The position numbers and the translations under genes were made by a program. Below, in pieces: positions 9,101-62,467 of a stretch of DNA of 64,000 nucleotides; position 1 is the stretch's first letter; the number at the start of each line of letters is the position of its first letter. The notes under the pieces are model-generated. The model did not search any database and was not told the origin of the DNA. It saw only the letters and a list, made by a program, of their open reading frames with translations. The stretch is from Umbilicaria muhlenbergii (taxonomy: Eukaryota > Ascomycota > Lecanoromycetes > Umbilicariales > Umbilicariaceae). Location: assembly GCA_000611775.1 (NCBI GenBank), contig KK106986.1, positions 496,001 to 560,000 of the forward strand, written 5' to 3'.

Positions 9101-10228
9101 GTCAGGGAGGCCACTAGCAGGGAAAAGGTGCGCTGCTTGATCAAATCTTGGGATGAGATCCGCCAGCCTGTCTATCGAACAGTCTCCCACATTGCTACTC
9201 CAGCGGAGCTTGGCAGCATGAAGCGCTCCCAGACACCATTTCGTATCGCTTTCCCGTTGCTCGTGCACAGGGCTTTGATCAACTTTCGCCGCCAACCACC
9301 TCTGCTTATAGCACGTATAATGCAAGGCAAGCCGATCGCTAGAATTACCCAACATCGAGGAGTGTGATGCTGACATCTCGATTTCTAGTCGTGGGATTAG
9401 GCATCGTCTTGACGGTGTTCTTTGCACCTCTCAAGAACGACTACTATGCTGTTCAGACACGTTCCGGGTACGTTCAGGAGTTCGCTGCCATGTACTTTGT
9501 CGGTATGCTGCAAAATGTCGCAGTCTACCCGTGAGTCGTCTTCTTTCTTCACTCAATGACTGGGTTTGCAAAGCTGACATTAAAGCAGAGCAGAGAAGAA
9601 TACCTTCTATCGTGAACACGACGATGGTGCCTATTCCGTCGAGGCCTTCTTTTGCCAATACACGGTCAATGAGGTCCCTTTCGAGATCATCACTGCACTC
9701 ATCTTCGCCTTACTGACAGACCTTGCCGCGGGTCTACCACGGACACCACAGCTTTTTTTCATCGTTGCGTTCAACTGTTTCTGCATCGTCAATTGCGGCG
9801 AGAGCGTCGGCATCATGTTCAACACCCTCTTCCACCACACCGGTTTCGCCGTCAACGTCACCTCGGTTATCCTCTCCCTGGCTACACTCATGGGCGGCGT
9901 CATGTCTTTGAATATGCCCGCTTTTTTGCAGGCGTTCAATCATCTTAGCCCCATCAAGTGGAGTCTTGGAAATCTTATGCCGTATACCTTCCGAGGCCAG
10001 ACGTTTACCTGCAATGAGTATCAACGACTACCGAGTGGGGCGTGTCCGATTGAGACGGGAGAGCAGGTGTTGAAATTGTATCACCTGGATGGTAATGCCG
10101 GGTTGAATCTTTTGGCGTTGGCGGTTTGTGTGGTTGTTTATAGGGGGGTGGCTTATCTGTTACTGAAGGCTAAGAGGACACATTGGGGTTACAGGGAATG
10201 GTTTGGAAAAGGGAGTCAAGGTGCATGA
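6176..10228 (+). CDS. Full-size ABCG (White/Adp1-type) ABC transporter
   Basis: Three exons: 6176-9326, 9389-9530, 9589-10228, giving 1310 residues in the order NBD1-TMD1-NBD2-TMD2. NBD1 has Walker A GGSGSGKTS, signature CSGGEKRR and Walker B VLFLDEVTTGLD (Val where most members have Pro). NBD2 has Walker A GPSGSGKTS, signature ISGGEKRR and Walker B VLLLDEPTSGLD. Each NBD is followed by a hydrophobic multi-helix domain. Intron 1 appears to use a GC-AG donor (CAAG/GCAAGC), which restores the expected ARIMQV..G junction; intron 2 is ordinary (GTGAGT). The start at 6176 (MEKDTWID) is preferred over an in-frame ATG at 6116. Such exporters move hydrophobic compounds or lipids; the substrate is unknown. 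It may share a promoter region with the PhyH gene. Confidence 0.92.
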
Positions 10229-10530
10229 GTTAGGAGTTATGAGCTTTGGTGAAAGGATGGTTTGGATATCAATCTGGGGTGCATACTCGTGGCGTGTTAG
10301 AAGCATAGCGTCGGGGTTCTTTGTGGATATAGAGATAATGTATTACCAGTCGCCACTGTCGACTTCAAGGAGTTCCCCAACTCCGTTAAATCGAGCCTTG
10401 GACATTTCGTATAAAGAGGCCCAATTTCTGTGGCCGCGCATGGCATGTCCACCCTTAGTGATAGGTGTTTGGGAACTTCATAGTGCGTCGCATGACATTC
10501 AAGAAGCTGCATTCTTAAACCTCCTGGGAT

Positions 10531-10640
10531 TCTTGGAACTCTTAGAACTCTTAGAACTCTTACAATAATATTCCAGGCACGCTTGTGATTGTTAGCACTC
10601 TTAGGGTTTGAGAGTTCTCAGAGTTTCGAGAACTCTTGAA
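10531..10640. repeat. Short tandem repeat plus hairpin
   Basis: A 9-bp unit related to GAACTCTTA is repeated about three times (10536-10563). Further on, AGAGTTCTC (10611-10619) and its exact reverse complement GAGAACTCT (10628-10636) form a 9-bp stem with an 8-base loop. The same ACTCTT word recurs throughout the block. It lies in the 3' flank of the ABCG gene. Confidence 0.7.
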
Positions 10641-10910
10641 ACTATCACAATTCTTCAGGACTATTGAGGGCTGGTTCTATCGTTGACCTTGACTTGTGAG
10701 AAGCTGTCTAGGGCTTTACCATCTTGAAGAACCAGTAATCCATCCGAGATGTATCTATTTGGTCAGTCACATGTAAGTGTTCCTGCCTTTCACTCATCGG
10801 CTGATCACACAAGGGCAGTATCACGATGTAGTTGAAGCATCAAGCCGCAATCACCGAGTAATAAAGGGCTCGAAATTTTGCACAACCGCTCACATTCAGC
10901 CTCTGACGAC

Positions 10911-10926
10911 GTCGACTCGAGTCGAC
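10911..10926. repeat. Perfect 16-bp palindrome GTCGACTCGAGTCGAC
   Basis: The sequence equals its own reverse complement over 16 bp, with symmetry broken on both sides. It is also a near-direct repeat of GTCGACTCG. It sits about 70 bp past the stop codon of eIF3i on that gene's 3' side. It may be a protein-binding site or simply chance. Confidence 0.75.
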
Positions 10927-10995
10927 TCGCCGCCCTAAGCTACGAGCAATGCAACCTCCTACCCAGAACGCCAAAGCATGACATTGTTCCGCCAT

Positions 10996-12217
10996 CTACC
11001 TGTTCGCCTGCTCCCTCTCGACCTCATACATAAAGTCAAAGTAGCCCTTATCAAAATGATGCACCCGCACATAACCATCCTCGCCACCACTAGCATAGCC
11101 CCTTCCCTGCGGATCCACGGCAATCGTGTTCAGCGGCCCGAAATGTCCTTTGACTCTGCCAATTTCGTCCTCGAAGATCTTGTGGTAAAAGCGGGCTTCG
11201 AACTTGCCTTGACGCGAAGAAGTGGTTGTCACATCCATGGCTGCTTGGCCACCGCCGAGGATGACGAAGTCTTTCTTGGGTGTGATGGCGGCGGTGTTTA
11301 GGGGGGTGTCTGCGACGTATCTTTTGAGAACTTCGAGCTTGCGGGCGGAAACGAGCTGGGATCATTAGCGTGGGCTCAGAAAATATCGCTTTGGGTACAT
11401 ACCGCTGCGGTCTTGTCTTTTGAAGCTGTGATGAAGTACGTTCGGTCCGGCGCCCACTGCAGGTCTGTAACTTGCATACCGTCTTCGTGGACTGGGTAGT
11501 TGTCGATCAGTTCGCCAGACTGCATTGATTAGTAACTTTGCCTTATCCGGAGGATCATTTGGCAGTACCTTAGCATCGTATTGTGACACGGTGCCGTCTT
11601 CATGCCCGGCGATGATATATTTCGACATATAGCTCCATCCCGCAACCGTAGCCTTGCTCTCATCGCAGGTAATAGTCAAGCTACGCTCGTCGGTCTGCTC
11701 AGCATTGACGTCCACCTTGATATCTAAAACCACGATCGTCCCTAAAAACCCCATGCGCTTTTCCGTGACTGCCAACAGTTGCGTGCCATCCTCTGAAAAT
11801 TCGACCCTCTTCACGGCGGTATTGAAGTCCCATACTTTGATGCATTTTCCCGTCCTGATATCCCACAGCCGTACCGTGTTGTCTGCGGCGCCGGTGGCGA
11901 GGAGGGTGGTAGAGGGGTCGACGTCAACGGTCCATAAAGCTCCTTGATGGCCGTGGTAGGTTCCAAGACGCTCGCCGTTTGCTGAGAACCAGGCGCAAAC
12001 CACCTGATCTTTTGCAGTGGAGAAGAGGATGTCGCCGTCTCGAGTGTACCTTTTGTGGGTGTCAGTATAGCTATTCTCTTCTATGCGCCTTGATAAAGCG
12101 GGCCTACTTGATTTGGGTCAGAGACCGCTCCTACGAAACCCACACGTTAGCCATAGGTCCACGCACAGAAGCAACTCGGTCTAAACCTACATGGCCTTGC
12201 AGGAGTATGGGTCTCAT
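10996..12217 (-). CDS. tif34: Eukaryotic translation initiation factor 3 subunit I (eIF3i)
   Basis: Five exons (minus): 12217-12191, 12130-12108, 12049-11569, 11519-11403, 11355-10996, giving 335 residues, the usual length for fungal eIF3i. It is a WD40 beta-propeller of the eIF3 complex that helps recruit mRNA to the 40S subunit. The start MRPILLQGH is the family's diagnostic N-terminus, followed by ERSLTQIKY across two introns, then WD repeats ending in LWDIRTGKC and similar. The first two exons are very small (27 and 23 nt); both introns have plausible donors (GTAGGT, GTAGGC) and one has branch GCTAACG. Intron 3 has branch TACTAAT. All junctions keep the frame. Confidence 0.93.
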
Positions 12218-16276: not shown

Positions 16277-17697
16277 ATGATAAACCTGTGGCCGGTGACT
16301 TCACGTCGAATTGGCGCATCCATTGCCGTTCACACTCCACGATCCTCACGAGTTGCCTTGGAACCACGACGATTCGGCGCAGCGTTTGTCCAATCTCGAA
16401 ACATGGCTTCCACCATCCCCAAGATCAAAGTCAAGAACCCCGTCGTGGAACTTGACGGCGATGAGATGACCCGCATCATCTGGAAAGACATCAAAGACAA
16501 ATTCATTCACCCCTATCTTGACATCGACCTCAAATACTTCGACCTAGGCCTTCCCTATCGAGATGAGACCAACGATCAAGTCACCATTGACGCTGCGGAG
16601 GCTATCAAGAAATACTCTGTGGGTGTCAAATGCGCGACAATTACACCGGACGAGGCGAGAGTAAAGGAGTTCAACCTTAAGGAAATGTGGCTCTCGCCGA
16701 ATGGGACGATTCGCAATATCCTGGGAGGAACGGTGTTCAGGGAGCCGATTGTGATCCCCAGGATCCCACGGCTGGTACCCGGGTGGAAGAAACCGATCAT
16801 CATTGGTCGTCATGCATTCGGTGATCAATACCGGGCCAAAGACTACGTCGTCAAGGGTGCGGGTACACTTGAGATGGTGTTTACCCCCGCCGGAGGAGAA
16901 CCGGAACGGATCAAGGTCTACGACTTCAAAGAAGGAGGCGGAGTTGCGCAGACACAGTACAATACTGATGAGTCGATCAGTGGCTTTGCGCACGCCAGCT
17001 TCAAGCTTGCGTTGAGTAAACCGCTGCCGTTGTATATGAGCACGAAGAACACGATCTTGAAGAAGTACGACGGGAGGTTCAAGGACATCTTCCAGGAGAT
17101 ATATGAAAGTACATACAAAAAGGAATTCGAGGAGAAGGGGATCTGGTACGAGCACCGGTTGATTGATGACATGGTTGCACAGATGATGAAGAGTTCTGGG
17201 GGCTACATTATGGCTTTGAAGAGTAGGTATTAACACCGACGCATTTGGAGTCCGGACACTAACACAAGACAGACTACGATGGTGATGTTCAGTCCGACAT
17301 TGTCGCTCAAGGGTTCGGCTCGCTGGGTCTCATGACCTCCGTCCTTATCACGCCCGATGGCAAGACCTTCGAATCAGAAGCCGCCCACGGCACCGTAACC
17401 CGCCACTACCGGGAACACCAAAAGGGCAACGAGACCTCGACGAATCCCATCGCCTCGATCTTTGCTTGGACAAGGGGATTGGTGCAACGGGGTGAGTTGG
17501 ATGGTACACCAGAGGTGGTGGCCTTTGCGGAGAGCTTGGAGAAGGCGTGTGTGGATACGGTGGATGTGGATGGGATCATGACGAAAGACTTGGCCTTGGC
17601 GTGTGGGAAGAAGGATAGGAAAGACTATGTGACTACGACGGAATATTTGGATGCGGTGGAGAGGCGAATGAAGACTAATCTCAAGCAGAAGCTTTAG
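16277..17697 (+). CDS. IDP1: NADP-dependent isocitrate dehydrogenase, mitochondrial (possible dual targeting)
   Basis: Two exons: 16277-17222 and 17273-17697, giving 456 residues. It oxidises isocitrate to 2-oxoglutarate with NADP. The core begins at [19 protein letters not shown]; the intron (GTAGGT, branch ACACTAACAC) joins ALK to [19 protein letters not shown], a conserved block of the eukaryotic dimeric NADP-IDH. Residues 1-42 are basic and hydrophobic with few acidic residues and look like a mitochondrial leader. A second in-frame ATG at 16403 ([10 protein letters not shown]) precedes the mature core, as would suit a cytosolic or peroxisomal form; the C-terminus (KQKL) resembles a weak PTS1-like tripeptide. 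Together with the neighbouring C1-THF synthase it is a source of NADPH. Confidence 0.95.
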
Positions 17698-18002: not shown

Positions 18003-18541
18003 TCACGATTTCGGCGGGAAAAACGGCTGTCCGGCCTTCGCGCCGCGAAACCGCATATTCAGCGCCTTCTCGACCTTGCCCAGCACGGCCCCATCCAGCA
18101 CATCATTCGGCCCCGGCGACTCCAACTTCTTAATCTTCGCCACGTCCACATTGATCTTCTTCGCCAACTCCGACTGCGTCATCTTGTAGGGACCCTCCGG
18201 GTCGCTGCGGCGCGCGGCGATCAGCCCGCCGATCTTGGCGTCCATTTTGGGGGGGGCCACGATGTCGTCGGCGCGGTCGACTTTGGTGAGACGTTGGCCT
18301 TCGACGCCGGGTTTGCTGGCCTGGAGAAGGGGGGGTTTTTAGAAATGAGGTGGGTGTGTGGGGCTGGGGATGGAGTGGGGCTTACGGCGTTGCCGACTGC
18401 GAATTTCTTTTCTGTGCCGATGATGGTGCCGCTGCGGGCGGCGGCGTTGAGGGCGCCTTTGCCGCGGACGACGGTTTCGCGCTGGGAGGCGGCGCCTTTG
18501 GTTTTGCTCCCGATTTTGGTGACGGTGTCCCAGTCGTCCAT
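18003..18541 (-). CDS. mbf1: Multiprotein-bridging factor 1 (transcriptional coactivator)
   Basis: Two exons (minus): 18541-18386 and 18320-18003, giving 157 residues. MBF1 bridges TBP and basic-leucine-zipper activators and also acts in ribosome quality control. The N-terminal MBF1 domain ([12 protein letters not shown]) is followed by a Cro/C1-type helix-turn-helix (about residues 85-140, with [22 protein letters not shown]). The intron (GTAAGC to CTCCAG) lies in a C-rich stretch on the sense strand. It is divergent from the DUF1365 gene (373 bp apart). Confidence 0.94.
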
Positions 18542-21694: not shown

Positions 21695-22174
21695 ATGGAA
21701 CAATATCCTTCCTCGAGCTCAAAAGTCACAGACACACCGTCGTCGCCCATCAACCACACCCAAGCCAACGCCGCCCACTCATCCACCATGCCATACAGCC
21801 CCGTCCTCGTCGTCACCTTCTGGGTTCTAATGCAAAAGACAATAACCAACGAAGACGACATCGCCACCATCATCAACAAGCATTTCGACGGCTACTCCGA
21901 CTTCAAACGCCAGGACATCATAACACTGTGGCACGACCTATTGCGCGATCTGCCAGAATGGCTGAAAGTTGTCGGCGACCATGAGCAGGGGGATGCACTG
22001 GTGCAGGATGTCCTCGCAGCGGTTGGGGAGGGGCGGCCAAAGATCCCGACGTTTCCGCGCGAGTTGCAGCCGGGGGCGCCTTGTTCCGAAGAGGAGGTCG
22101 AGGAGGTGAGGATGTGGATGTGGTCTGGTGGTAAGGCTGATGCCCTGATGAAAGATAGTGACGTTGTAGGATAG
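21695..22174 (+). CDS. Hypothetical protein, 159 residues
   Basis: Single open frame without recognised family. The N-terminal 35 residues are Ser/Thr-rich; the central part (WVLMQKTITNEDDIATIINK and then DIITLWHDLLRDLPEWLKVV) looks helical and protein-like; the end is acidic with a Trp pair (MWMWSGGKAD). The ORF converges on the MRF1 gene with about 200 bp between stops. On the sense strand, composition switches from C-rich to G-rich near 21965. It could be a species-restricted gene or a chance ORF in a skewed stretch. Confidence 0.45.
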   Translation: MEQYPSSSSKVTDTPSSPINHTQANAAHSSTMPYSPVLVVTFWVLMQKTITNEDDIATIINKHFDGYSDFKRQDIITLWHDLLRDLPEWLKVVGDHEQGDALVQDVLAAVGEGRPKIPTFPRELQPGAPCSEEEVEEVRMWMWSGGKADALMKDSDVVG

Positions 22175-27036: not shown

Positions 27037-28634
<1,598 letters not shown>

Positions 28635-32303: not shown

Positions 32304-33329
32304 AGAAGTGGTTTGAGATTCCCGCAAGGTCAACTCATGACAATTATCTTTTGCGTTGGGGTCTTACAGCAACGGTAGTATGGCGTTATACTTCGGTCGT
32401 ACTGCTTGACATAATGACCTTGGGGCGAGGAAACCTATCCGGTGGTGGGTGCGGAATTGGCATATCATCGTGGGCATTCTCTCTTGCTTTATTCACCCAA
32501 TATTGCGACAGCTTATTCGTCGCATCTATGACCCTCGGATCTGTTGGCACACTTCACTCCTCTTTCCCCTTATGTCTCTGCTATGCGAGTGCTTCAATCA
32601 TGTTACAATGCGTAGAGTATGCTTGACATAGGCTCAGCTCAGAATACAAGATGCTTGATTCATATCCGCTGCGGCTTCTGATCTTCTGCATCCGGTTATC
32701 GATATACCTAATATTCGATGCCGCTTTGCCAATGTTTTCGCCATGGCGAGAATTCTCTTGTTTGTGCTTTGCTGCGGTTCCTTGCATGACAAGCTCCGGC
32801 CATAGCGATGCAGTTGCCTCGTAGGCCTTGTGTCTGCCGAACTTGCGTCCCCAAACGGTGATGTACTCGACGGTAAGTGTATCCAGGAACGGGTGCCAAG
32901 CTAACAACTCTTGAGAAGCAATTAATCTTAGAACTATCCCTCATGTCTGGTCTAGAGCTTATAAATAAACTTATTAGCGGATGTATTACAAAATGTTTCA
33001 TTCTAGTGGAGACGTGCATCCCGTTGCAGGTTCATGCTTACACAGCTACGCAACGATCACTCTATGTTGCCAATTTTGGTTACTTGTGAGTGATGACAAC
33101 AGAGATGCGGAGCAAGTTGCAGGATCTAGTCCAGTTACTTGTGAGTGATGACAACAGAGATGCGGAGCAAGTTGCAGGATCTAGTCCAACATGTTGGACT
33201 TCGGGTGAGTGCATGGTCGCAGCCCCGTGTGGTTAAACGAGCCATGTGATGACACGCTAGACTCGACTTTAAGCAAACGGCTTCCCACCTGCCATCAATT
33301 CCAACCACCTCCGATAGAGGCTCGATTGG
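32304..33329. other. Intergenic region with a possible minus-strand exon and a tandem duplication
   Basis: A minus-strand frame (32907-32581) reads FLDTLTVEYITVWGRKFGRH and onward in a protein-like way after a possible acceptor TTGTTAG, but no full gene could be built. The 55-bp duplication at 33079-33188 is listed separately. Confidence 0.3.
33079..33188. repeat. Perfect 55-bp tandem duplication
   Basis: 33079-33133 and 33134-33188 are identical and directly adjacent (unit begins GTTACTTGTGAGTGATGACA and ends GGATCTAGTCCA). Two copies only, in non-coding DNA. The lack of any divergence suggests a recent event or an assembly artefact. Confidence 0.9.
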
Positions 33330-36107: not shown

Positions 36108-37192
36108 ATGGCGTCGCTTCAGCAGTCCGGGACAGCTGGAAAGCGACGGACGACTACGCCCTTCACCAAGGGAGCTCTTGTTCCTGTTTGGATCATCCAA
36201 GGCGTTGTGCTGCTGCTCTATATTGGTGTTCTGAGCTGGGAAGCTTTCTATGCTTTGGGCCAGAATCTAGTGTACGTGCTTCAGGACCCTCTAGCTGGCT
36301 TCAGTTTGAAGCCTTACTATCTGATATGAAAGGTCACGCCGACGAGGAGATCTCCTGCTGACAATAATACACGACTACAGGGAAGATATTGTGATTCTGG
36401 TTCTGTGCGCCGTCTGCCTACTTCTCGATGTCACGGAGATGATCCTGTTCCGCACGAAGCGACTGAAACCGCTACTATTCCTTATCTTCCAGGTGGTCAA
36501 GGTCGCGCTGTGGCTTATTGTCCTCGCCGTCTGTCTTTCCAGCATAATGCGGCAAAAGACCAAGTACCACTGGAACGTCTTCAGCGTCGAGGGTGTTTTC
36601 GCGGGTGGTTTGATCGAAGTTGTTATCATCTTGTAAGTCAAACCCTTGCCTTATCGTTCCAAACCAGTCAATGTTCTGTTGAGCCCTCTCACCAGTAGTA
36701 GTGGCGATATTAACCGCGGTGACCGATGCTGATTCTACAAGACTCGCATTTCTCGCAAGCTTAGCATTAGGCTCCATGGTCTACCACCGCCATCGCCACC
36801 GCAAGGCCAGTCACATCAGCATCTCCCACCCAACTCCCGACACCCATCGTAGGCGGACATTCATCGAAGAAGGCTGCACTACAGTACACTATCCCAACCC
36901 TGAAGTCATCCACCATCCCATCCCTGAAGTCGTCCACCCCGCCTATCGTGGAAGTACGTACAAGGGACCTATGAGCCGCCACGCTGATGCACCAAGTTTG
37001 ACAGAGGGGACGGAGCATGCCGGGCCTTGCTACGAGGGAGAGAGCACGGCTGGACCGGTTATAGAGCTGGGCGTGTCTAAAGGTAAAGCGCCGAGTAGAG
37101 GGCCAGCGACTCCGCGTACAGGGTCGCACGAGGTAGGGGACGAAGAGGTATTCGAGATGGGTTCGAACCGAAGTTATAGGAGAGATTCATAG
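36108..37192 (+). CDS. Four-helix integral membrane protein of unknown function
   Basis: Three exons: 36108-36271, 36381-36632, 36742-37192, giving 288 residues. Four hydrophobic segments are visible: VPVWIIQGVVLLLYIGVLSW (about 25-44), IVILVLCAVCLLLD (about 57-72), LLFLIFQVVKVALWLIVLAV (about 86-105), and a last one spanning the exon 2/3 junction (VEGVFAGGLIEVVIILLLAF). A cytosolic-type tail of about 130 residues follows, rich in His, Arg, Pro and Thr. The topology is like MARVEL or small fungal tetraspan proteins; no specific family recognised. Intron signals are good (GTACGT; GTAAGT with branch ATTAACC). Confidence 0.75.
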
Positions 37193-37861: not shown

Positions 37862-38486
37862 ATGCGAGCTTTAGGCCCAGCACTTCTCGCAACCTTGGGC
37901 CCGCTGGCCGTCGGAATCCTAGCCATCTCGGCCGGTGCTTCCTCACTCGCGGTTCGAAGTCGGTTCTGCGACAATGCTCCCAGTACTGTAGCTGGAACGT
38001 AGGTCAAGCAAATCTCTCAACAGCCGGATCATATTCGGAAGTGCAGAAGTCTGACGACCAAAGCACAGGGTCCTCCACCAGCGTACGCTTGAGCAATCGA
38101 GCGGCCCACCCGCACACCGCCGTAGCACCTCGACACACCTCTGGTGCGCCCCAGGAACTCAGACGTATGTAGTCATCACCATGACCGAAGTGATTGCCGA
38201 AAGCGTCATACTGTACATCCTACAGACGGGATCTGCGTACATTGCAGACTACATCAGAATCATGGGTGACGGGGTGGTTCCGAATGGTGGAGTGGTTTGG
38301 CCGGGACCTGATGGCGTCAGCCTCATCACTTGGAATCTCAACAACCACCAAACGACGTGGGGTGTGCTCGGTGCCGCTTTGGGAGCTGTGGGGGAGTTCA
38401 TGAGCCGGAATGGGTATGGAGGGGCGAGGTTCAGTATCTATGATGGAGCGCATGAGGTTGGTGCTGGGACCCTTACTTGGTCGTAA
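37862..38486 (+). CDS. Small secreted protein, family copy A
   Basis: Two exons: 37862-37998 and 38069-38486, giving 184 residues. The N-terminus (ALGPALLATLGPLAVGILAI) is a clear signal peptide. Two Cys remain after it (RFCDNAPSTVAGT and LWCAPGTQTY), so one disulphide is possible. The C-terminal 55 residues carry TWNLNNHQTTWGVLGAAL and NGYGGARFSIYDGAHEVGAG. The same layout, motifs and intron position (phase 2, inside the Thr codon of VAGT) are found in copy B at 61439. I do not know a characterised member. Secretion is inferred from the signal peptide; a role as cell-wall, antimicrobial or effector protein is only a guess. Confidence 0.8.
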
Positions 38487-39212: not shown

Positions 39213-40295
39213 CTAATCCTGCGCGACCAACACAGCCCTGTACCGAACCTTCCCGTCGTTCAGATTCTGCATCGCTTCCGTAATGCCCTCGACACCCATC
39301 GGATATTTCTCAATCATCGGCTTGATCTGATGGAACGCCGCAAACTCCAACATCCGATTATGAATCGCCCTCGGCGCGACCAGCGACCCTTGCACTCTCA
39401 GGCCGTACGCCAGCAACGGCATATACGGCATGGCAAAGTCTCCATCCGCGACACTGAGCGGGTAGATAGTCGCTTCAGGCGCCAAGGCGTTCATATATAG
39501 GTTCCAATCCGGCTTGAAACTCGTGGTGACGAGGAGATGATCGATCGGCGCCTTGACCTTCAACTCCTTGAGACCCTTAGTAGCGTAGAATTCCTTCGCG
39601 CCCAGCTTCAGCGCCTCTTCCTTCTTACTCTCCGTGCCAGAGAAAACGACAACTTCACAACCCCACTTGCTGGCGAATTGGATCGCTAGATGGCCCAGGC
39701 CGCCGACGCCGATGATACCGACGCGGTGTGTGGGCCGGATGTCGTACATGTCGAGGCAGGTGAAGACGGTGGCGCCGCCGCACATGAGCGGGGCGGCATC
39801 TTCGTTTTTGATGGAAGAGGGGATGCGGAAGAGGTAGGCTTCGCGCCAGACGGAGTGGGTGGCGAAGGAGCCTTGGTCGGCGCATTGGGGGGAGCCGTAC
39901 ATGACGCGTGAGGGGCAGAAGGTCTCTTTGCCAGTGAGGCATTGTTGGCAGTGGCCGCAGGTTTCGAAAATGTAGCCCCAGCCGACATTGTCGCCGCTGG
40001 AGAGCAGCCATGTTAGCTAGCTCTGTTCGGACTTCTTGGATGCTGGGGAGGGGACCTACATTTTTAGGGTTTGGACATCGGGGCCGATTTCTTGGACGAC
40101 GCCTGCGCCTTCATGTCCTAGGCCTTGGTCCTTATGTCTGTAGTGTTCGTCGGTGCCGCATAGGCCGGAGTGTGTGACTTTGACGAGGACTTGGTCTTTC
40201 TCAAGGGGCCCATGGTGGGTAGTGCTCTTCACGATGCTTCCGCCTTTAGAGCCTTTGTAGAGGGTGAAATCGATTTGCTTGCTCGAGGAAGACAT
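39213..40295 (-). CDS. Zinc-dependent alcohol dehydrogenase (cinnamyl-alcohol/ADH6-type)
   Basis: Two exons (minus): 40295-40060 and 39996-39213, giving 339 residues. Catalytic zinc ligands are in GLCGTDEHY and GHEGAG; the structural zinc cluster is CGHCQQCLTGKETFC; the cofactor fold is GIIGVGGLGHLAIQFA. It probably reduces aldehydes with NADPH like Adh6/Adh7 or YahK. The intron (GTAGGT, branch AGCTAACA, acceptor CTCCAG) joins VQTLKI to GDNVGWGY. The start at 40295 (MSSSSKQIDF) is preferred over an upstream in-frame ATG at 40376. Confidence 0.93.
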
Positions 40296-41171: not shown

Positions 41172-43550
41172 CTACGCACTCTCTCTCCCTAGCCTCGCTA
41201 GCTCACCCATGACAAAATCTTCCGCGTTCACCAACTCCGTACTTCCATACACGACCCTCCTCCTGGTCGCTCCCACCGCCCCTCCCGCCGCACCACCGCC
41301 ACCCGTCCTCTTCGCCCAATCCTGCAAGTTACCATACTCATCCATCGACCCTCCCCCAACCGTAAAGACAATCGCTTCGCTGAACCCTTGCCGTCTCTGC
41401 CCAAAACTCGCTCCGGTGCCCGGGCCGAGACTCCCCAGCCCACCCGGAATGCCTTGCTGATGGCGCGCCTGTGATGGTGCGGGCATCGTGCCCCTGGCGT
41501 TGGCGGACCGAGGGTCAAAGTAGAGGTAGTTTTCCGTCTTCGCGATGGCCGACGAGGAAGCCGAGGCAGGATCCATGAGAGATTCGGTGATCTTGGTGAT
41601 GGTGAGATCCTTATTCACGGGGAGGAAGTTCTTGACGCCCGAGATCAGGTTCTCGAAGTTGGCGCCGAGGGCACCATCTTTCAGGCGGTCTGTCAGGCGG
41701 TTGCTGATGGAGCTGAAGCCACGGAAGAGTTCGCCGCCGGTGGATTGGGGTGCTGGCTGCGACGGAGCCGAAGTCATCATGGTCATGCGCGTGATCTCCC
41801 GTACCCTAGGTTCTGGCTTAGCTAGCACGAGGACCGGGAGTGGGGGAGAGTACGTACCTTTTCACATAAGCCAGTGCGGTGATATCGCATCCAGCCTTCG
41901 TCAAAGCTTCCTCGAAGCGATCCATTTCCGTCCTAGAAACATCCTGTTCGGTACTGAGAAACCATATGATAAAAAGACGGAGTTTATCCAAAGGCTCCTT
42001 TCCTTTCCCTTCGTCATTCAAAAGGTCCAGGATTTGCGCTTTTGTCTGCTTTGTGATGTTTTCTTCTATCTGGAAGAAGTTATCTAGTTGACGATCCTTG
42101 ATGCCCTTGAGCAAGGCGGTTGCAATGTTCATGTGCATGTCTAGCGTCGCTTTACGTTCTCTCAGCTCTGGCAGCAGTGTGATTGCGGCTTTGAGGTGCT
42201 GTGCTGATGCGCTTGTGTCGTTCTGTAGATCCTCTATGGAGGATGCTCCAGTCTTTTTCGTGATGTCATTGGCATCCTCTCTGTATCGTGTAAGCTCTGC
42301 GTCGATATCTTCTGCGACTTGAGGAAAAGGTACACCAGCGTTTCGAGACCAAAAGAAATCATTCGAGTTCAGATCATATGCCCGCTTTGTGTTACCTTTG
42401 GTGGGATTATTCTCGTCGATTGGTGTTTCAACGGTGATGCGATTCAGGTGCATTTTCAGTACATCATGGACAAGGGACTGGTAGGTCCATGAATGCGACA
42501 ACATGGGGATGAGATCAATGTTTCGGTCCACAATTACCAGGACAGGCCGTGATGAAGGTGTGCCACTTGCAGATGACGGTCTTTGACCGTGGCTGGAGAA
42601 CAAGTTGTCTTTCGAGTTCAAGATATGATCCCTGAGCTTACGATCCAGTTTTGCCGAAATCATCTCTGCAGCACCTCCTCTGGGAGATCGTATTATCGGG
42701 ATGGCCCCTAATGTGCTATTAGTGGGAAGACGCACTCATTGCGGAATGGACGTACCCATCGTTACCACGACACTGAAGAGGCCACTAACTATCCTGTCCA
42801 CAACCGCATCTAACTCTTCGTCCTTGGCTTGGGCACTGTTGAGTGTCCAGTACGTCTCTTTTCCCATCCCTAGGCTGAACAAATCCGGTTCTCCAACAAT
42901 GAAGTTCAGATATTGATCATATACTTGAGCTATGCTCTCCGCTGTCCCAGATGCGGCGATTTGACTGGCGAAGTCTTCCATAAGAGGTCGTGGTATTGAG
43001 GATAAGAAGTTGATGTAAGCGTCCGAGTACAAAGTGCGGGATAGATCCGACGCAATGAGCTGTATGTTGGTTGCTGTTGGCTCTACGAGATAGAGTACAG
43101 GAACATCTGGTATTGGATGACGAGGGGAGTTTATGTTTCTAGTTGAAATCAGCATTGCCATCAGGCAGATGAACGGATGCTTGAGGCCAGCTTGGTAAGA
43201 GACAAAGCCCGGACACCGAGATACGCACAGATGTATTGTGACGCCCCATGCCCGTAAGTCGTTGACCCGCAACACGCTGCTGATCACATCGCGCCCCAAG
43301 TTATCGAAGACAAGGACCTTCCATATAGGATCACCGTCTGAGTTCAGGATGGGTGTCGCTTGATGTATGAGGCCGTTCGTAGCAGCGGACTCATGGTGAG
43401 AATTGTCGCTGCCGGAAGACGTATGGTTGAGGTTGAGGATTTTCTCAATGGAAGCTGCGTAGAAGGAGTCAGTACCACGGCCGTGGAGGAGCTGATGCAG
43501 GCAGGCCTACCTACTTGCCGGTCTCGCAATGAATGCTGTTGAGAGGCCAT
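41172..43550 (-). CDS. SLY1: SM protein Sly1 (ER-Golgi vesicle fusion)
   Basis: Five exons (minus): 43550-43511, 43454-43229, 43138-42756, 42707-41858, 41805-41172, giving 710 residues, the normal Sly1 length. Sly1 binds the syntaxin Sed5 and promotes SNARE assembly. The N-terminus [18 protein letters not shown] matches yeast Sly1 once intron 1 is removed at GTAG/GTAGGC; other markers are [47 protein letters not shown] and [12 protein letters not shown]. Near the C-terminus a Gly-rich stretch ([12 protein letters not shown]) precedes the family's closing block [17 protein letters not shown]. It is divergent from the TFIIS-N/CCCH gene, about 0.9 kb apart. Confidence 0.95.
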
Positions 43551-48269: not shown

Positions 48270-49426
48270 ATGGAATCCCAACAGAACACTCATAACTTCT
48301 CTAGTGTTGACCATCTCATCGTGGTATGCTGCCACGCTATCTGGCTTGGCGGTCCCAGCAATGGTCAAGACGAATCTGAATGGTAATCCTGTCGCTCATG
48401 TCCATCATCAAATGCTCTGTTGAGGGGTGCTATGACCTGCGAACGGAGTTGCTATATGCAAGCTGACATGACGCCAGGGCTATCGAGCCCTTTCAGCATG
48501 GCGAAACACCTACCTTCATCGAGCACATCAAAGCAGGTCTTCAAGTCTTGAGCGAGCAGCCGGATTCGTTACTTATGTTCTCGGGGTAGGCTTCTGCTGA
48601 CTGCCCCGGATTTTGAGCCCGTGCTGACTCATGGAAGAGGGCCAACGAAGCCTACGATTACACCACTGAGCGAAGCTGAAACGTACCTAGTGAGCTTAGC
48701 TTTCATTATATCTGTGTTCTTAGATCAGGCAAGCTACCTATGTCTTTTCATTTCCAGCATGTAATCTGGACAAAAGCCATGGCAGTTTAATATGTCTTGT
48801 AGCTAGCCCACCAACCCCTCGTTGCCCTAAGCGGATTACCACCCAGCCTCTTCACCACTCGCGCTAATCATCATCCCATTAATTCCTTGCCACTTTTCTG
48901 TTGGAACCTAACCAACCCCCCATAGAACCTCGCCCTCACACCCAACCTCATCCCCAACCCCTTCCCCCGCCCACACCTAACCACCGATCCCCACGCCACC
49001 GACTCCCATCAAAACTTGCTCTTCTCGCTCCTACGTTTCCACACCCTCACCGCGCGTTACCCCACCCACATAACGCTCATCTCGCACGCCTTCAAACGCG
49101 ACCGCTTCACCGAGATCCACCGAACCGCCATCCGTTGGCCCATCGAGAAGTTTTCGTTCGTGGGTATCGATCCGCCGGAGAGCGTGACGCCGAGAGCGGT
49201 GCTGGATGATGTAGAGGGGGGAGTGGTGGGGGCGATGAGAGAGTGGAGGAAGGATCGGTATGGGGTTGGGGAGGTGTTGGGGGGGAAGAGGAAGAAGAGA
49301 GGGTGGAGGGGTGTGAGTGAGGTTGTTTTGGGAGAAGGGGTGGAGAAAGGGGTGAGGGAATTAGTGGAGTGGAGGGGTGGGGAGACGGGGATGGAGGTGT
49401 ATCCTGGGGAGTTGCCGTGGGGTTAG
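48270..49426 (+). CDS. DUF218-domain protein
   Basis: Four exons: 48270-48382, 48478-48585, 48638-48689, 48926-49426, giving 257 residues. The chain reads HLIVVCCHAIWLGGP, then IEPFQHGETPTFIEHIKAGL, then LLMFSGGPTKPTITPLSEAETYL, then DSHQNLLFSLLRF and ITLISHAFKRDRF. This is the pattern of fungal DUF218 proteins: a conserved His/Gly N-terminal strand, a FSGG loop, and a late HxFKR motif. All four exons are in frame; introns are GTAATC, GTAGGC, and a longer third (GTGAGC to CATAG, 236 bp). Enzyme activity is unknown. Composition changes from C-rich to G-rich inside exon 4 (near 49150), making its last 80 residues rich in Gly, Glu, Val and Arg. Confidence 0.78.
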
Positions 49427-49549
49427 GTTACCGGTGAGGTCGACAACTTCTTTAGTATAGTTTTGCGCCGAAGCATTTGTAGCGAGATATAGGGAGAAGC
49501 ACGGCTGCCGGCCCAAAATATATATAGAGGTATATATTCGTGAACAAGC

Positions 49550-50390
49550 CTATACCTTTTCGCTAATCTTAATCGCTGCCCTACAACCCGCCCTAATCAC
49601 ATTCGTAAGTAACCCATACCCCCCCGCCAACTTCGCATCATGCTCCACCGCATGATCCAAATGCTCCAACTCCTCATCCCGAATCCTCTTCAACTCGCCC
49701 ACCAATTCCCTCACCTCCTCTCCCACCTCCTCCCCCCTCTCCTCCATCTCCTTCATCCAACCCAACAGCACCCGCACCTGTCCATTATAGTGCCCGCCTA
49801 TCTCCGTCTCCACGGCCTCCGTACACGCCATCGCCGCCTCCCGCCCCATCACCGCTGTGCTCCAGCCTAGAGCTGTGGCGGCGAGTTTCCAGACGGGGTA
49901 CATGGCTGTGGGGCGGATGCGGTGACGCGCGAGGAGGTGATTGAAGGTGGAGAAGTGGCCGGCTTCTTGGGCGTACATGTGTTGCATCAAGGGACGCAGG
50001 TGTGGGTGTGCTTTTACGATTGGGGGGGTTTGCGCGGTGTAGATCAGGGTGGCGGCGAGTTCGCCGGCTTGGTTGACGCGGAGCTGGTGGAGACATTGGT
50101 CTGTTAGATGGTTGGGTGGTGGCTGGTGGGAGCTGGAAGTCATTACTTACGGCGCTGTCGAGGAATTTCTTCTGCGAGGGGGTTAGGGGGAGGCGTCGCT
50201 TGGCTGATGAGGAGGAGTGCAGGGATTCGGGTTTGGGCTCGGTGCACGGAGGAAGGGAGGAGGTGGTGATTGATGCATGTTGGGTTCTTGGGCGCCCCTG
50301 GGTGAGACAGGGTACTAGAAAGTCGTAGACGGGGAGTTGACGACGGAAGGTGGATGTATATAGTGAGCGCAGGGTTGCCGCAGCGTTCAT
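49550..50390 (-). CDS. COQ7: 5-demethoxyubiquinone hydroxylase, mitochondrial
   Basis: Two exons (minus): 50390-50147 and 50100-49550, giving 264 residues. Coq7/CLK-1 carries out the penultimate step of ubiquinone synthesis on the mitochondrial inner membrane. Di-iron ligands are seen in NQAGELAA, EAGHFSTF, EAVETEIGGHY and DEELEHLDHAVEH. The N-terminal ~70 residues (MNAAATLRSLYTSTFRRQL and on) form a mitochondrial leader. Intron donor is GTAA/GTAATG, branch CATCTAACAG, joining FLDSAV to NQCLHQLRV. It is divergent from RTF1. Confidence 0.94.
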
Positions 50391-50996: not shown

Positions 50997-53082
50997 ATGG
51001 CTGATCTCGACGCAGAACTTCTCGCTTTGGCGGGAGGTGATTCCTCTGACGATGAATCAACCAAGCCAACAACAACTACTACCAAGAACGAGTCACCGGC
51101 TTCCTCTACTCGTAGTCCAACTGGTAATTCCAACGGCGCCGTCATGGGCAAACTCGGCGTGGCGCAGAAGAAATCCAATGTGACCAAGGCGAGGGTAGGT
51201 GTCAAGAAGATGACCAAGAAGGGGAGGAGAGACGATTCTGAGGAGGAAGGAGAAGCGTAAGTATTACCGTACTTGATACTTCAAGTCCAAATCCTCACTA
51301 CCACTTGATACATAACCCATATCTCATTCCAGGTCCTCGGCGCCTGCGTCCCCCAACTCTCTACAGTCCGCCCCGATGTCAGAATCCGACTCCGACACAT
51401 CTCCCGCCGCTGACGTGGACGATGACGGTCAACTCTTCCCCTACGAGAAACAGTTCAAATCCGAAAAGGACAAAGCAGAAATCATGGCAATGTCCGAAGT
51501 TCAACGTGAATCGATCCTGGCTGAGCGGGCTCAGCTCCAGGAACGTAAGTTACAGGATCTCCATCTTCGACGACTCCTCCAAGCTCGAGAGAACGCAGAG
51601 TCGAAGGCTACCGACAAGAAGAAGCGAAAAGCAGGGGCTGCAGACCTTGAAGACACTCAACGCAAGAGTTCTAGGCAGAAGACAACACTTGGCGGACGCA
51701 AAGTTGGCGAGAGCTCGGATGCCATGGAAGCCTACAAACGCCAGAGAGAGCAGAAAGGGCTTCGTGATGAGCAGCGTCGACGTGAAGGTGAAGAGCGGAG
51801 GGAGCGCAAGGCCCGCGGTGCTATCGACGACGGATACTCGGATGCAGACGCGGATGGGGAGAGCGAAGTGGAGTGGGATGATGGGAGACCCAAAGCTGGA
51901 CGTCGTTCGGCATCTTTACCCCGTGACGAGCAGCCAGCAGATCTCAGAGACTTCGAGCATGTCCGCGTGGGCCGGGACAACTTTGCCAAAGTCTGTTTCT
52001 ATCCAGGATTCGACAACGCCATTAAGAACTGTTTCGCTCGTATTAGCATTGGCGTTGACAAAGCGACTGGAGAGAACGTCTACCGAGTTGCACAGATCAA
52101 GTCATTCACCGAAGGCAAGCCATATGCTATGGAGGGCCCGAACGGCAAACCATTCGTCACTAATCAGTACGCTTTGGTCGCCGTTGGTAAATCGGAGAAA
52201 GAGTGGCCGTTCCTCGCTTGCTCGAATTCGAAGTTCACCGAGGCCGAGTTCGAGAGGTACAAGAAAACCATGGTTGTTGAAAACCTGTCAGTGCCCACAA
52301 AGCCATTCCTGATCTCCAAAGTCAACGACATCAACAACCTGATCAACCACCGCTTCACCGAAGAAGAGATCCAACAAAAGCTCAACCGCTCGGGCGCCCT
52401 CAAGACTAAATTCGCCTCCCTCGAACGCACCACCCTCCTCTCCCGCCGCAAAGAAGCCGAATCCGCCGGCGACGAAAAACTCATCGCCAAACTCGACGCC
52501 GAGCTCGCCGCGCTCGAAGGCCCCAAACTCGCCTTTGGAACAAGCCTCACCAAGAGCCCCGCCAAACCCTCCTCCTCCACCACCACCACGAGCTCCACCC
52601 AACAAGAACGTCTCGCCGCCCTCAACCGCGCCAACCGCAAGGCCAACGCGGAGGAGATCCGAAAAGCCCAACACGCGGAGAAGAAAGCGGATGCGATCGC
52701 TCGTAAAGCTGTTGAGCGCGGAGAAGCCGTCGCTAATCCCTTTGCGCGCGTCAAGACGAGAGCGAAAGTTCATTATGACGTTAATGGCGACGGGTTGCTT
52801 GCGCCGCCGCTGCCGGCTACGCATGCGCTGGATGAGCTGTTCGAGGGGGGGAGTAGGGAGGGGAGTCGTGCGGGGACGCCGTTGAGTGTGGGGGCGGGGG
52901 GGCCGGGGTCGAAGACGGGGACGCCGAAGAGGGGGGGGGCGCCGTTGCTGATGGTTAGGGGCAATGGGAATGGGGGCGGGGAGGAGAAGAAGGGCGGAGT
53001 GGGGATCGGGATTGGGAGGAAGAGGAATATGGATGATGATGTTCTGGCGGCGTTGGATATGGGGATTGATATTGAGATTTAG
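50997..53082 (+). CDS. RTF1: Paf1 complex subunit Rtf1
   Basis: Two exons: 50997-51256 and 51333-53082, giving 669 residues. Rtf1 works with RNA polymerase II elongation and is needed for histone H2B ubiquitination. The N-terminus MADLDAELLALAGGDSSDDE is typical; an acidic and basic disordered part follows, then the Plus3 domain (about 290-425, with LRDFEHVRVGRDNFAKVCF and KATGENVYRVAQIKSF), which binds phosphorylated Spt5. A coiled coil follows (NRSGALKTKFASLERTTLL). The C-terminal ~90 residues become Gly/Arg-rich as the sense strand turns G-rich after about 52780. The intron (GTAAGT to TTCCAG) joins EEEGEA to SSAPASP. Confidence 0.95.
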
Positions 53083-60001: not shown

Positions 60002-60684
60002 TCAGGCCGAAGCAGTTGCCTCAACAACATCGTGCTCGCCTCCTTCCTCGTCAAGGAGAGAGTAATGATCACCCCTCTCGGCAGCTTTTCCCGCGGATGG
60101 GTCTTCTGGCACGTTCTTCCAGCGACGCTTACAATCCGGGCAAGTAGCTACCTTCCCCCGGGAACCGTCGTTATCGATCCATCTTGCCCAACACCAGATA
60201 AGGTAGTCTTGAGAGCGACGAATCCATGGATAGCCCTGAGCGGCATGTCAACATCTCGGGGACTCCAACATCGATTGGAAATGCGAGCTTACGAGGACGC
60301 CATCCAGGGTATACTAGCATAAGCTCCCATTAGAACCTCATCACTCCGATGATACCGAGGCAATAAACCGTTGACGATGAGCAAAGCTAGGAAGCTCAAG
60401 AACCACAAGCTGTCCATAAAGACTAGTAGCCCAAGGGGCATGCCCTGCTTGAATATACTTCGAGGAGACGCAAGATCGGCGAGATCCCAGACTATGGACA
60501 GAGCAAGCTATTGGAAGGCACAGTGAGTAAAAGTCTGTCCAACTCGACGACCGTTCTAGGGTAACGTTGCGCTACAAATACTTACTGGTATCAAAGCGAT
60601 AAGCTGAACTGTAGGAACATACCATGAAACGCCAATGTAAACGGAACTTAGAATCAGTCCCAGTACGGAAAAGCCAATATCAAT
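60002..60684 (-). CDS. Membrane protein with C-terminal CPxC motif; probable frameshift, 5' end unresolved
   Basis: Exons (minus) 60684-60586, 60507-60293 and 60235 onward join in frame. They encode hydrophobic helices (IGFSVLGLILSSVYIGVSWY, then LGLLVFMDSLWFLSFLALLI, then IPWMASSAIHGFVALKTTL). The frame stops at 60148, but a different frame continues from the same point with CPDCKRRWKNVPEDPSAGKA to a stop at 60002 and reads like the Zn-knuckle-like cytosolic tail of fungal small tetraspan proteins. The two frames would match if a C5 run (60155-60159; G5 on the sense strand) had one more base. The first exon was not found; an in-frame stop lies shortly before the acceptor at 60685. No family name can be given. 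It could be a pseudogene. Confidence 0.5.
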
Positions 60685-61438
60685 CTTGCGAAGACGTTAG
60701 CGTTCGTGCTGATATACACCGGACGTTTTGGAGTCGCTACCCGGAAATAGCCAATCTTCTGCGCTGGCCTGGCTACCCATGGTTGTTCTTAACGTGGAGT
60801 GTTGACACTGTTCCGTATGTGCGTCTTTCACGATGTGGAGTCAGGATATCCGAATCGACCCAGGATTTCGAGCAAACCAGTTGACGGAATCAAACAGAGC
60901 ATATATTCAACTTCTACGAGAACAGGAGTATTGACTATATAGTAGTTGTCTAACGAGCTGTGCCACGGCCGCAGCCAGCAAAAGCGATAGGCAACAACAA
61001 ATGTACGGTATTGTTTCCCACGCCGCACTATTCCGACTTTGCAACGCTAATACCCTGGTGACCCAACGGGAGAAAGTGCCACAGGCCGTGTCTCAAATGG
61101 TCTTTGGCCAGAAGGGCGGAGTTGGGCGCAAGCAAATCCTTCGAAGACACTCCTGCGCCTTCAGAATAACAGACACGTTAACCAAGAAGCCCCTTGAAAC
61201 ACGGCGTGAGGAATTTTGCAATACGCGCCTCTGCCGGTCCAAAACCATTAGCCCTCATGAATTCTCGCATCGATGCCGGAACATATCCCGCCTTTTGTCT
61301 CCCACACTGATGCGTAGAGTACCTTGGAGGAAGCAGATTGTTAGTGAAACATGAGGATAGGGTACATACATATAAAAATGGCATACCGTCATAAACACAT
61401 TACCACACTGACCCCCACTCACCTCATCTTCACTCCTC
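60685..61438. other. Intergenic region, may hold first exon(s) of the minus-strand membrane protein
   Basis: 754 bp. A minus ATG at 60780 (MGSQASAEDWLFPG) is a possible first exon but no donor keeps frame with an intron of ordinary size. A minus frame ending at 61178 contains MREFMRANGFGPAEARIAKF and may be a coding remnant. Confidence 0.35.
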
Positions 61439-62149
61439 ATGCGGCTCTCCTCTATCATTGCCGTCCTAGCCCAATCGACCGGGCTATCGCTGTCAGCCCC
61501 ACTACCCGCCAGCCTCTCCTCCCTGCTGATCCCCCGAACCCAATTCTGCGCCAATGCACCCTCGACAGTAGCAGGGACGTGAGTTCAGTTCTCCCAACCC
61601 CCCATCCCACAGCTTCCTCTCCTCTCCGCCCGAACTCACAAAAACCCCACACTAACACCATCCTCCCCCCTCACCAGCCTCCTGCCCCGCCACCTCCCCT
61701 CCGATCCCACTCCCCGACCCCCCGCCCCCGCACCCTTCGACCAACGCCCACGCACTCATGTCCTCCCCCCCCGCGACCCCCCCACCATCCTCTGGTGCGC
61801 CCCCCACAGCCGCATCTACACCATAATAACCCTAACAACCACCCTCTCCTCCCCCCCCTCCCCCTCAACCATCGCCTCCCTCCTAAGCTCCGCATCCGCC
61901 TACGTAGCGACGCACATCCACGAACTCGGGGACGCTGTGATCGCGCGCGGGAAGTTCGAAATGCGGGACGCTGGGGGCCTGGCCCTGCGGACGTGGAACG
62001 CGAATAACCATCAGCAGACGTGGGGGACGCTGTGGGGGGCGCTGGATGCGTTGAGGGATTATATGGGGACGAATGGATATGCGGGGGCGAGGTTTGGGAT
62101 TTTTGACGGGCAGCATTTGGTTGGGGAGGGGGTTTTGGGGGGGGGTTGA
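61439..62149 (+). CDS. Small secreted protein, family copy B
   Basis: Two exons: 61439-61578 and 61678-62149, giving 203 residues. Signal peptide MRLSSIIAVLAQSTGLSLSA. It shares with copy A (37862) the block FCxNAPSTVAGT at the exon border, the phase-2 intron inside that Thr codon, LWCAP in the middle, and the C-terminal TWNxNNHQxTWGxLxxAL plus NGYxGARFxIxDGxHxVGxG. By eye 31 of 52 residues agree in that last block. A Pro-rich linker after the intron (DPTPRPPAPAPFD) is longer than in copy A, and the sense strand is strongly C-rich up to about 61900 and then G-rich. The intron (GTGAGT, branch CACTAACA) is ordinary. Function unknown. Confidence 0.8.
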
Positions 62150-62467
62150 TTTTGGGGGGGAGGGGAGGGTTGGCGGGAGGTGGATTGAGACGGTGGTGGG
62201 GTTCATTGATGAGGGTTGTTCTTGTTGCACTGGTTGCATTGGTAGCATGGACGTCCATGTTGAGCTCTCGGGTTATTAGCAACTTTAGGGTCCTAACATA
62301 CTTTAGCCTTATTTCTGTTCTTTAAACCGGGCTAGTACGGAGACAATGACCAGCTACCAAAATGGAGGTATTCAAATATCACGACGCATTCGTCATGCGC
62401 GCAACAGAAGCATTTGCACAAGGCCGCACCATATACCATAGCTGGCCCTTTCTAAAAGTCTTGCTTG
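62150..62467. other. Convergent 3' intergenic region
   Basis: About 318 bp between secreted protein B and TPS2, beginning with a G-rich tract. Nothing recognised. Confidence 0.45.

What the first reader, a model, noticed from the sequence alone, without database searches (positions are those of the whole stretch)
9700..62180. Repeated C-rich to G-rich strand switches across many loci, regardless of gene direction
At many loci the + strand changes over a few tens of bases from C-rich to G-rich going left to right: near 9960, 11150, 17465, 18235, 21965, 35705, 36965, 39680, 41465, 49150, 49860, 52770, 53830 and 61920. It happens inside + genes (ABCG, NADP-IDH, RTF1, copy B) and - genes (MBF1, ADH, SLY1, COQ7, CBM19-like). 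Because reverse complement keeps the C-then-G order, it is a property of the double strand and not of codon usage along the sense strand. It sits mostly in the 3' half of + genes and at matching places in - genes. Possible causes are local replication-origin-like skew minima, recombination or repair tracts with strand-biased substitution. I know of no standard description of this in fungi.
Basis: partly seen in the sequence, partly recalled or inferred. Interest (0 to 1): 0.72.

Follow-up and report, generated by a model that had tools for sequence, protein, structure and literature searches.

The report
Sharp G-rich ends on fungal genes
The C-to-G switches mark where the coding strand of a fungal gene turns G-rich shortly before its stop codon, a known average tendency of fungal genes that here often starts as an abrupt step whose cause is not known.

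Summary
The switches are real. Each of the 14 listed sites has, within 150 bp, a C-to-G skew jump at or above the 97.4th percentile of the window. 13 of 14 lie 107-467 bp upstream of a stop codon; 35705 does not. They are the 5' borders of a coding-strand G-biased segment running from about -250 to +150 around the stop.

The average pattern is published: McLean and Tirosh 2011 (PMC3315797) report C-bias in fungal genes turning to G-bias at the 3' end. What goes beyond it: pooled over 18 genes the change is a step, not a ramp. It is strongest at third codon positions. G-rich ends go with C-rich upstream stretches. Third-position GC is raised on both sides. Ends facing a convergent neighbour look stronger, but gene models are rough.

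Replication origins, RNA hairpins, protein demand and deamination alone fit poorly. A process tied to transcript 3' ends is my first choice; strand-biased gene conversion spreading from a point is not excluded.

The parts
10032..10228 (+). G-biased 3' segment of the ABC transporter (ABCG/PDR-type) gene; switch at its left edge
   Evidence: Pfam ABC2_membrane in the last ORF; sense skew +0.43/+0.62 in the last 200 bp
10996..11172 (-). G-biased 3' segment of the eIF3i gene; switch at its right edge
   Evidence: Pfam EIF3I in the neighbouring exon 11368-12117; skew +0.52 in the last 100 bp
17473..17697 (+). G-biased 3' segment of the isocitrate dehydrogenase gene
   Evidence: Pfam Iso_dh; skew +0.49/+0.49 in the last 200 bp
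18003..18198 (-). G-biased 3' segment of MBF1 (convergent with the previous gene)
   Evidence: PDB match to TrMBF1 (2jvl_A, E 1.5e-14), no Pfam hit; skew +0.32/+0.24
21938..22174 (+). G-biased 3' segment of an unnamed ORF (convergent with a release-factor gene)
   Evidence: no Pfam hit for the ORF; fitted step 246 bp before stop, p 0.055 against linear
36984..37192 (+). G-biased 3' segment of an unnamed ORF
   Evidence: (no Pfam hit)
39213..39671 (-). G-biased 3' segment of a zinc-binding dehydrogenase (ADH) gene
   Evidence: step 453 bp before stop, G fraction of G/C-ending codons 0.10 to 0.69
41172..41445 (-). G-biased 3' segment of the Sec1-family (SLY1) gene
   Evidence: step not preferred over linear (p 0.29)
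48926..49143 (+). C-biased arm of an unnamed ORF
   Evidence: skew -0.69/-0.60 at -600..-300
49144..49426 (+). G-biased arm of the same ORF, ending at its stop codon
   Evidence: skew +0.93/+0.83 in the last 200 bp; no Pfam hit
49550..49853 (-). G-biased arm of COQ7 (its C-biased arm lies to the right, about 49854-50150)
   Evidence: Pfam COQ7 covers residues 21-195 of 198; step 303 bp before stop, G fraction 0.20 to 0.93
52794..53082 (+). G-biased arm of RTF1, continuing into the 3' flank
   Evidence: (Pfam Plus-3), 45, 50: step 288 bp before stop, 0.28 to 0.93; skew +0.77/+0.52 in the 200 bp after the stop
   Evidence: step 111 bp before stop, 0.32 to 0.93; no Pfam hit
61583..61926 (+). C-biased arm of copy B
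   Evidence: third positions C 0.74, G 0.05 over 57 codons aligned with copy A
61927..62149 (+). G-biased arm of copy B
   Evidence: third positions C 0.14, G 0.62 over 73 aligned codons
38055..38486 (+). copy A, paralogue of copy B with a much weaker version of the same switch
   Evidence: 41% identity over 127 aa; third positions left C 0.42 G 0.23, right C 0.23 G 0.36
4715..4955 (-).
   Evidence: fitted step 240 bp before stop, but a broad transition fits best

Best explanation
The switches are the upstream borders of a coding-strand G-biased (C-poor) segment that covers roughly the last 100-450 bp of a gene plus the first 100-150 bp after the stop; upstream of it the coding strand is C-biased. 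SHOWN here: the stop-anchored average, the step-like border in pooled fits, predominance at third codon positions, carry-over into the 3' flank, association of strong G ends with C-rich upstream stretches, raised third-position GC on both sides. INFERRED: this is the fungal 5'C/3'G skew of McLean and Tirosh, and the bias arises from a process tied to transcript 3' ends that favours G over C on the non-template strand there. Likeliest driver in my view: termination-phase transcription (R-loop-prone, G-rich non-template DNA that is maintained by, or helps, termination, most where two genes converge). I put this driver at about 0.35; the confidence field is for the identity (3'-end coding-strand skew with a step border).
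For: Stop-aligned coding strand of 70 predicted genes: skew -0.04 to -0.06 at -500..-300, +0.24 at -100..-50, crossing zero near +150; no comparable jump around predicted starts, only a slow rise inside genes. 22 hand-listed 3' ends in the window: skew positive in the last 100 bp in 21 of 22, at -450..-300 in 4 of 22. Synonymous sites: in the 20 of 60 genes with the strongest ends, NNY C/(C+T) is 0.77 at 450-600 bp before the stop and 0.30 in the last 120 bp; NNR G/(A+G) 0.48 and 0.82; in the weakest 20 both stay within 0.53-0.64. Skew change across 18 fitted switches at codon positions 1/2/3: 0.19/0.43/0.96; skew of the first 100 bp after the stop +0.26. Step against linear rise, 18 genes chosen by linear rise: pooled gain 125 log units, null 3.0 +- 8.9, 0 of 200 simulations; 11 of 18 genes p<0.05 singly. 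Convergent 23 genes mean terminal skew 0.20, tandem 17 genes 0.02, p=0.016; outside the window 10 against 11 genes, p=0.018. Prior art: most species of McLean and Tirosh have this layout.
Against: A purely mutational transcription bias is not expected to raise GC (general knowledge), yet third-position GC near switches is 0.68 against 0.59 farther upstream in the same 12 genes (p=0.007); but 30 other genes also rise near their ends, 0.55 to 0.58 (p=0.004), and the two rises were not tested against each other. A termination signal does not by itself explain the C-rich arm, which reaches to about 900 bp before the stop. 7 of 18 genes do not individually prefer a step; a broad transition fits best in 3 of 18 and a ramp beats the best sigmoid in 3 of 18. 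One of the 18, window 16403-17233, is an upstream part of the isocitrate dehydrogenase gene, not a gene end. The convergent/tandem contrast may be inflated by mis-called ends in tandem pairs. No expression, R-loop or 3'-end data were available.
Confidence: 0.85

Rival explanations
1. Strand-biased gene conversion radiating from a recombination-initiation point near gene 3' ends: to the left the top strand, to the right the bottom strand (the 3'-ended strands) gain C. In heteroduplex, mismatches with G on the donor strand would be corrected on the invading strand better than mismatches with C (mismatch-repair preferences recalled, not looked up), making each invading strand C-rich and G-poor.
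For: Step border: the pooled fit of 18 genes prefers a sigmoid scale of 1-5 bp; 40 bp rejected at p 0.005, 20 bp borderline at p 0.05. GC3 0.63-0.72 from -300 to +225, 0.50-0.65 at -900..-600. Arms close to complementary at 4-fold sites: left A,C,G,T 91,325,133,100; right T,G,C,A 75,315,85,70. In copy B against copy A both arms differ together at identical residues. Many Zymoseptoria tritici hotspots lie in exons, 1435 of 2578 (PMC5844332, passage). A repair-strand bias set by break geometry is known for single-strand annealing in mouse cells (PMC9001825, abstract only).
Against: The two arms still differ at p=0.036. Right of +225 GC3 is 0.60, 0.56 and 0.66, not a clean decay. No recombination data for this genome. 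In Zymoseptoria GC-biased conversion is very weak or absent (PMC5844332, that section read), and in the mouse assay mismatch type had little influence, whereas this model needs it. McLean and Tirosh find a strong gradient in C. albicans and weak ones in S. cerevisiae and S. pombe, the reverse of their meiotic activity (recalled). Strand-skewed conversion of this kind is not known to me.
Confidence: 0.27
2. Transcription-coupled mutation or repair with different regimes in elongation and termination (the mutational hypothesis of McLean and Tirosh).
For: Skew at third positions and in the 3' flank; published reasoning. At two-fold NNY sites of strong genes T does gain on C in the G arm, C/(C+T) 0.30 in the last 120 bp.
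Against: Deamination alone predicts a general T gain; at 4-fold sites of strong genes T is 0.17-0.19 in the last 240 bp against 0.23-0.25 in weak genes, and G takes 0.53-0.54. GC rises. A regime change would not obviously give a step of a few tens of bp.
Confidence: 0.2
3. Replication-origin-like skew minima.
For: Origins also give a C-to-G jump on the + strand (general knowledge).
Against: 14 sites in 52 kb, arms of a few hundred bp, 13 of 14 tied to stop codons of genes in both orientations.
Confidence: 0.02
4. Selection for an RNA hairpin formed by the C-rich and G-rich arms.
For: The arms are complementary in composition; one site (isocitrate dehydrogenase) folds more stably than shuffled, z -2.6.
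Against: 300 nt at 14 switches against 60 shuffles inside each arm: z from -2.6 to +2.0, more stable than the shuffle mean in 3 of 14.
Confidence: 0.02
5. Protein-level or translational demand on gene ends.
For: Codon positions 1 and 2 shift too.
Against: Position 3 shifts most (0.96 against 0.19 and 0.43) and the first 100 bp after the stop are skewed as well. In the C arm NNY codons gain C but NNR codons do not gain G, unlike general codon optimisation.
Confidence: 0.05

Closest known systems
Opposite GC skews at the 5' and 3' ends of fungal genes (McLean and Tirosh 2011, PMC3315797)
   Same: [quoted passage not shown] seen at 4-fold sites; their data list includes many filamentous species.
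   Different: They describe averages and, for C. albicans, gradual linear ramps; here pooled single-gene fits prefer step borders. Their main text holds none of the words convergent, neighbor, recombination or gene conversion.
3' GC skew with R-loops at human gene ends (Ginno et al. 2013; recalled, not held under the DOI I recalled)
   Same: G-rich non-template strand at gene 3' ends, proposed to aid termination.
   Different: No R-loop data here; the upstream C-rich arm is not part of that description as I recall it.
GC-biased gene conversion at recombination hotspots
   Same: Local GC rise over a few hundred bp.
   Different: As generally described it is strand-symmetric (recalled); here the favoured base is C on one side and G on the other.

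Membership tests
McLean-Tirosh fungal 5'C/3'G coding-strand skew | C-bias at the 5' end or over most of the gene | tested here: met
   skew -0.08 to -0.13 from -100 to +200 around predicted starts; -0.04 to -0.12 at -750..-300 before stops. Mild, and from +400 to +850 after starts the average is slightly positive
McLean-Tirosh fungal 5'C/3'G coding-strand skew | G-bias at the 3' end | tested here: met
   +0.24 peak over 70 genes; 21 of 22 window gene ends
McLean-Tirosh fungal 5'C/3'G coding-strand skew | Present at 4-fold sites and in 3' flanks | tested here: met
McLean-Tirosh fungal 5'C/3'G coding-strand skew | Gradual ramp at the 3' end (their description for C. albicans, not a defining rule) | tested here: not met
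   step preferred over linear rise and over a hockey-stick ramp (-50.6 log units pooled); 7 of 18 genes not individually significant, 3 of 18 slightly better with the ramp
Replication-origin skew jump | Kilobase-scale arms independent of genes | tested here: not met
GC-biased gene conversion at hotspots | Local GC rise at the site | tested here: met
   10 of 12 testable switch genes; other genes rise too, less
GC-biased gene conversion at hotspots | Recombination or break hotspot at the site | not testable with these tools
   no population, tetrad or Spo11 data
R-loop-associated 3' skew | R-loop over the G arm | not testable with these tools
   no DRIP or bisulfite data

The most novel reading that the evidence does not exclude
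Each switch is the footprint of a focal event site near a gene 3' end (a meiotic or transcription-induced break) from which strand-biased, GC-favouring gene conversion spreads both ways, so that the 3'-ended strand on each side becomes C-rich. The genome would then carry a sequence-readable map, to within tens of bases, of where recombination starts, and the fungal 3' G-skew known since 2011 would be its blurred average.
Probability: 0.25. Interest if true: 0.8.

Novelty: new variant of a known kind. Interest (0 to 1): 0.42.

Why it matters
The fungal 3' G-skew has been described since 2011; its authors offered two explanations and settled on neither. That single genes can switch over a few tens of bases, with C gained on one side and G on the other and GC raised on both, is a strong constraint: smooth transcription gradients and deamination alone do not predict it. 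It makes the cause testable by mapping poly(A) sites, R-loops and meiotic breaks against switch positions in a tractable laboratory fungus.

Tried and rejected
Gene finding: an ORF-only pass kept 25 ORFs; two versions of my own finder merged genes; a stricter one gave 100 predictions in 184 kb and is the basis of the gene-level statistics. Its splice-signal weights were recalled, not trained. It splits genes at missed introns and misses genes. The first convergent/tandem table held such split genes as 'tandem'; I repeated it requiring at least 250 bp to the next gene. The 8 AT-rich stretches of the 20 fetched were left out of gene-level work.

Of 24 C-to-G switches with D>=45 in gene-rich DNA, 10 lay in a last-500-bp zone, 12 in unassigned DNA, 1 near a gene start and 1 in a 3' flank. 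I looked at 10 places of the unassigned kind: two look like C-rich introns followed by exons (L017 near 8764, L020 near 6815) and some look intergenic (window 35681, L018 2083). So not every sharp C-to-G switch is a gene 3' end.

No convincing shared word at the switch: best 6-mer in 4 of 23 sites, p 1.5e-4 before correction for the words tested. RNA structure rejected. Species not identified: one search found no 5.8S rRNA and four searches for SSU rRNA did not complete. Paper searches (10 of 10 used): 0 papers; listings only (22 papers, mostly mitochondrial genomes; 6; 4; 10 of 148 listed; 3; 13; 5 of 6 listed) led to PMC5844332 (passages and one section), PMC6892556 (abstract) and PMC9001825 (abstract). 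PMC6892556 reports a preference for AT-rich codons near gene ends, a different trend. McLean and Tirosh was recalled, then read.


Full report
What was checked. The window is C6:496001-560000 of a 34.8 Mb, 7-contig genome. I compared it with 20 further 10-kb stretches. The window and the 12 stretches with GC above 0.48, 184 kb in all, were used for gene-level work; 8 AT-rich stretches were left out. Gene models are my own ORF/splice predictions. For the window I scanned 28 reading frames against Pfam: 8 of 10 and 5 of 10 gave a family at E<=0.001, and 7 of 8 at E<=0.05, one of these (DUF6197 in the copy B frame, E 0.039) below its family's cut-off. MBF1, without a Pfam hit, was matched in the PDB.

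The observation. Each of the 14 sites has a C-to-G jump of the + strand within 150 bp. Across 264 kb, C-to-G and G-to-C jumps are about equally frequent at moderate size; C-to-G ones prevail only among the sharpest, and outside the window hardly. Inside coding sequence the asymmetry is clear: 18 of 60 predicted genes beat their synonymous shuffles for C-to-G at p<0.05, 2 of 60 for G-to-C.

What it is. Aligned on stop codons, the coding strand of 70 predicted genes is mildly C-biased until about -300, rises to +0.24 near -100, crosses zero near +150 and is slightly negative beyond. In the window 21 of 22 hand-listed ends are G-biased in the last 100 bp; the exception is a C1-tetrahydrofolate synthase gene (-0.02). 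Between convergent genes two such segments meet and give matching G-to-C switches, for example at 49427 and 49578 between an unnamed ORF and COQ7.

Shape. Using only G- and C-ending codons, 18 predicted genes (of those with at least 450 bp of coding sequence, 60) show a significant rise toward the stop. They were chosen by the linear rise, not by sharpness; one, window 16403-17233, is an upstream part of the isocitrate dehydrogenase gene. Pooled, a step fits far better than a linear rise. A common sigmoid scale of 1-5 bp is preferred, 40 bp rejected and 20 bp borderline after parametric bootstrap. Genes vary: 11 of 18 prefer the step at p<0.05; in 3 of 18 a broad transition fits best and in 3 of 18 a ramp does slightly better than any sigmoid.

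Two-sidedness. Genes with strong G ends have C-rich upstream stretches: Spearman -0.33 (p 0.014, 54 genes) and -0.42 (p 0.004, 46 genes) (that table includes split genes), and -0.44 (p 0.04) for the 22 hand-listed ends. In the third of genes chosen only by their end, NNY codons use C in 0.68-0.77 of cases at 330-600 bp before the stop (weak genes 0.54), while NNR codons do not gain G. Third-position GC is higher around the switch than upstream in 10 of 12 testable genes, 0.68 against 0.59 (p 0.007); around a stand-in position in 30 other genes it also rises, 0.58 against 0.55 (p 0.004). At 4-fold sites the two arms are close to complementary, though they differ at p 0.036.

A natural comparison. 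Copies A (38055-38486) and B (61583-62149) are paralogues with 41% identity over 127 residues. At aligned codons B has C 0.74, G 0.05 left of its switch and G 0.62, C 0.14 right of it; A has C 0.42, G 0.23 and G 0.36, C 0.23. At identical residues (25 left, 36 right), third bases differ left of the switch in 13 cases: 9 times B has C where A has A, T or G, 3 times the reverse (C in A, A in B), once A against G. Right of it they differ in 19: 12 times B has G where A has T, A or C, otherwise C against T 4, T against C 2, G against A 1. The direction of change is not known, but both arms differ together, with many transversions.

Mechanism. Deamination alone does not fit: at 4-fold sites T does not rise in the G arm of strong genes, though at two-fold NNY sites T does gain on C. 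RNA structure does not fit. Protein demand does not fit, since third positions and the first 100 bp after the stop carry the signal. Origins do not fit the scale. What remains is (i) a process tied to transcript 3' ends, favoured by the stop anchoring, the end of the signal about 100-150 bp past the stop, the published pattern across many fungi and the convergent/tandem difference; and (ii) conversion spreading from a point, favoured by the step, the GC rise and the near-complementary arms. I give (i) in its termination or R-loop form about 0.35, (ii) about 0.27 (0.25 for its bold form), and a mutational transcription bias about 0.2. The corrections made on checking did not change these odds.

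Known or new. [quoted passage not shown] For C. albicans they fit gradual ramps, and their main text does not hold the words convergent, neighbor, recombination or gene conversion. I found no description of step-like borders in the listings; that library lacks most subscription journals, and I read only the papers named here.

Limits. Gene ends come from an unvalidated predictor; the sample is 184 kb of one genome; no relatives, expression, 3'-end, R-loop or recombination data could be used; the organism was not identified.

Noticed in passing
window 38055-38486 and 61583-62149: Two paralogous ORFs (41% identity over 127 aa) in the same window, both apparently facing a convergent neighbour, with very different strength of the skew switch.
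   Followed up: yes
L009, L010, L016, L021, L023, L024, L026, L028: 8 of 20 sampled 10-kb stretches are AT-rich (GC 0.31-0.42) beside a 0.50-0.56 GC compartment; their TA/AT is 0.58-0.80 and (CA+TG)/(AC+GT) 1.36-1.74, which is not the usual repeat-induced point mutation signature (recalled) and looks more like CpG decay.
   Followed up: partly
L017 about 8670-8750; L020 about 6676-6815: Apparent introns that are very C-rich on the coding strand, giving another kind of sharp C-to-G switch at the next exon (my reading of the sequence).
   Followed up: no
window 35681: Strong C-to-G switch (D 55) with no gene end assigned, upstream of a possible membrane-protein ORF.
   Followed up: partly
window 33079-33188: Exact two-copy tandem duplication of a 55-bp unit.
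   Followed up: no
L019 about 5722-5757: Short GGGGTT repeat array next to a very C-rich stretch.
   Followed up: no
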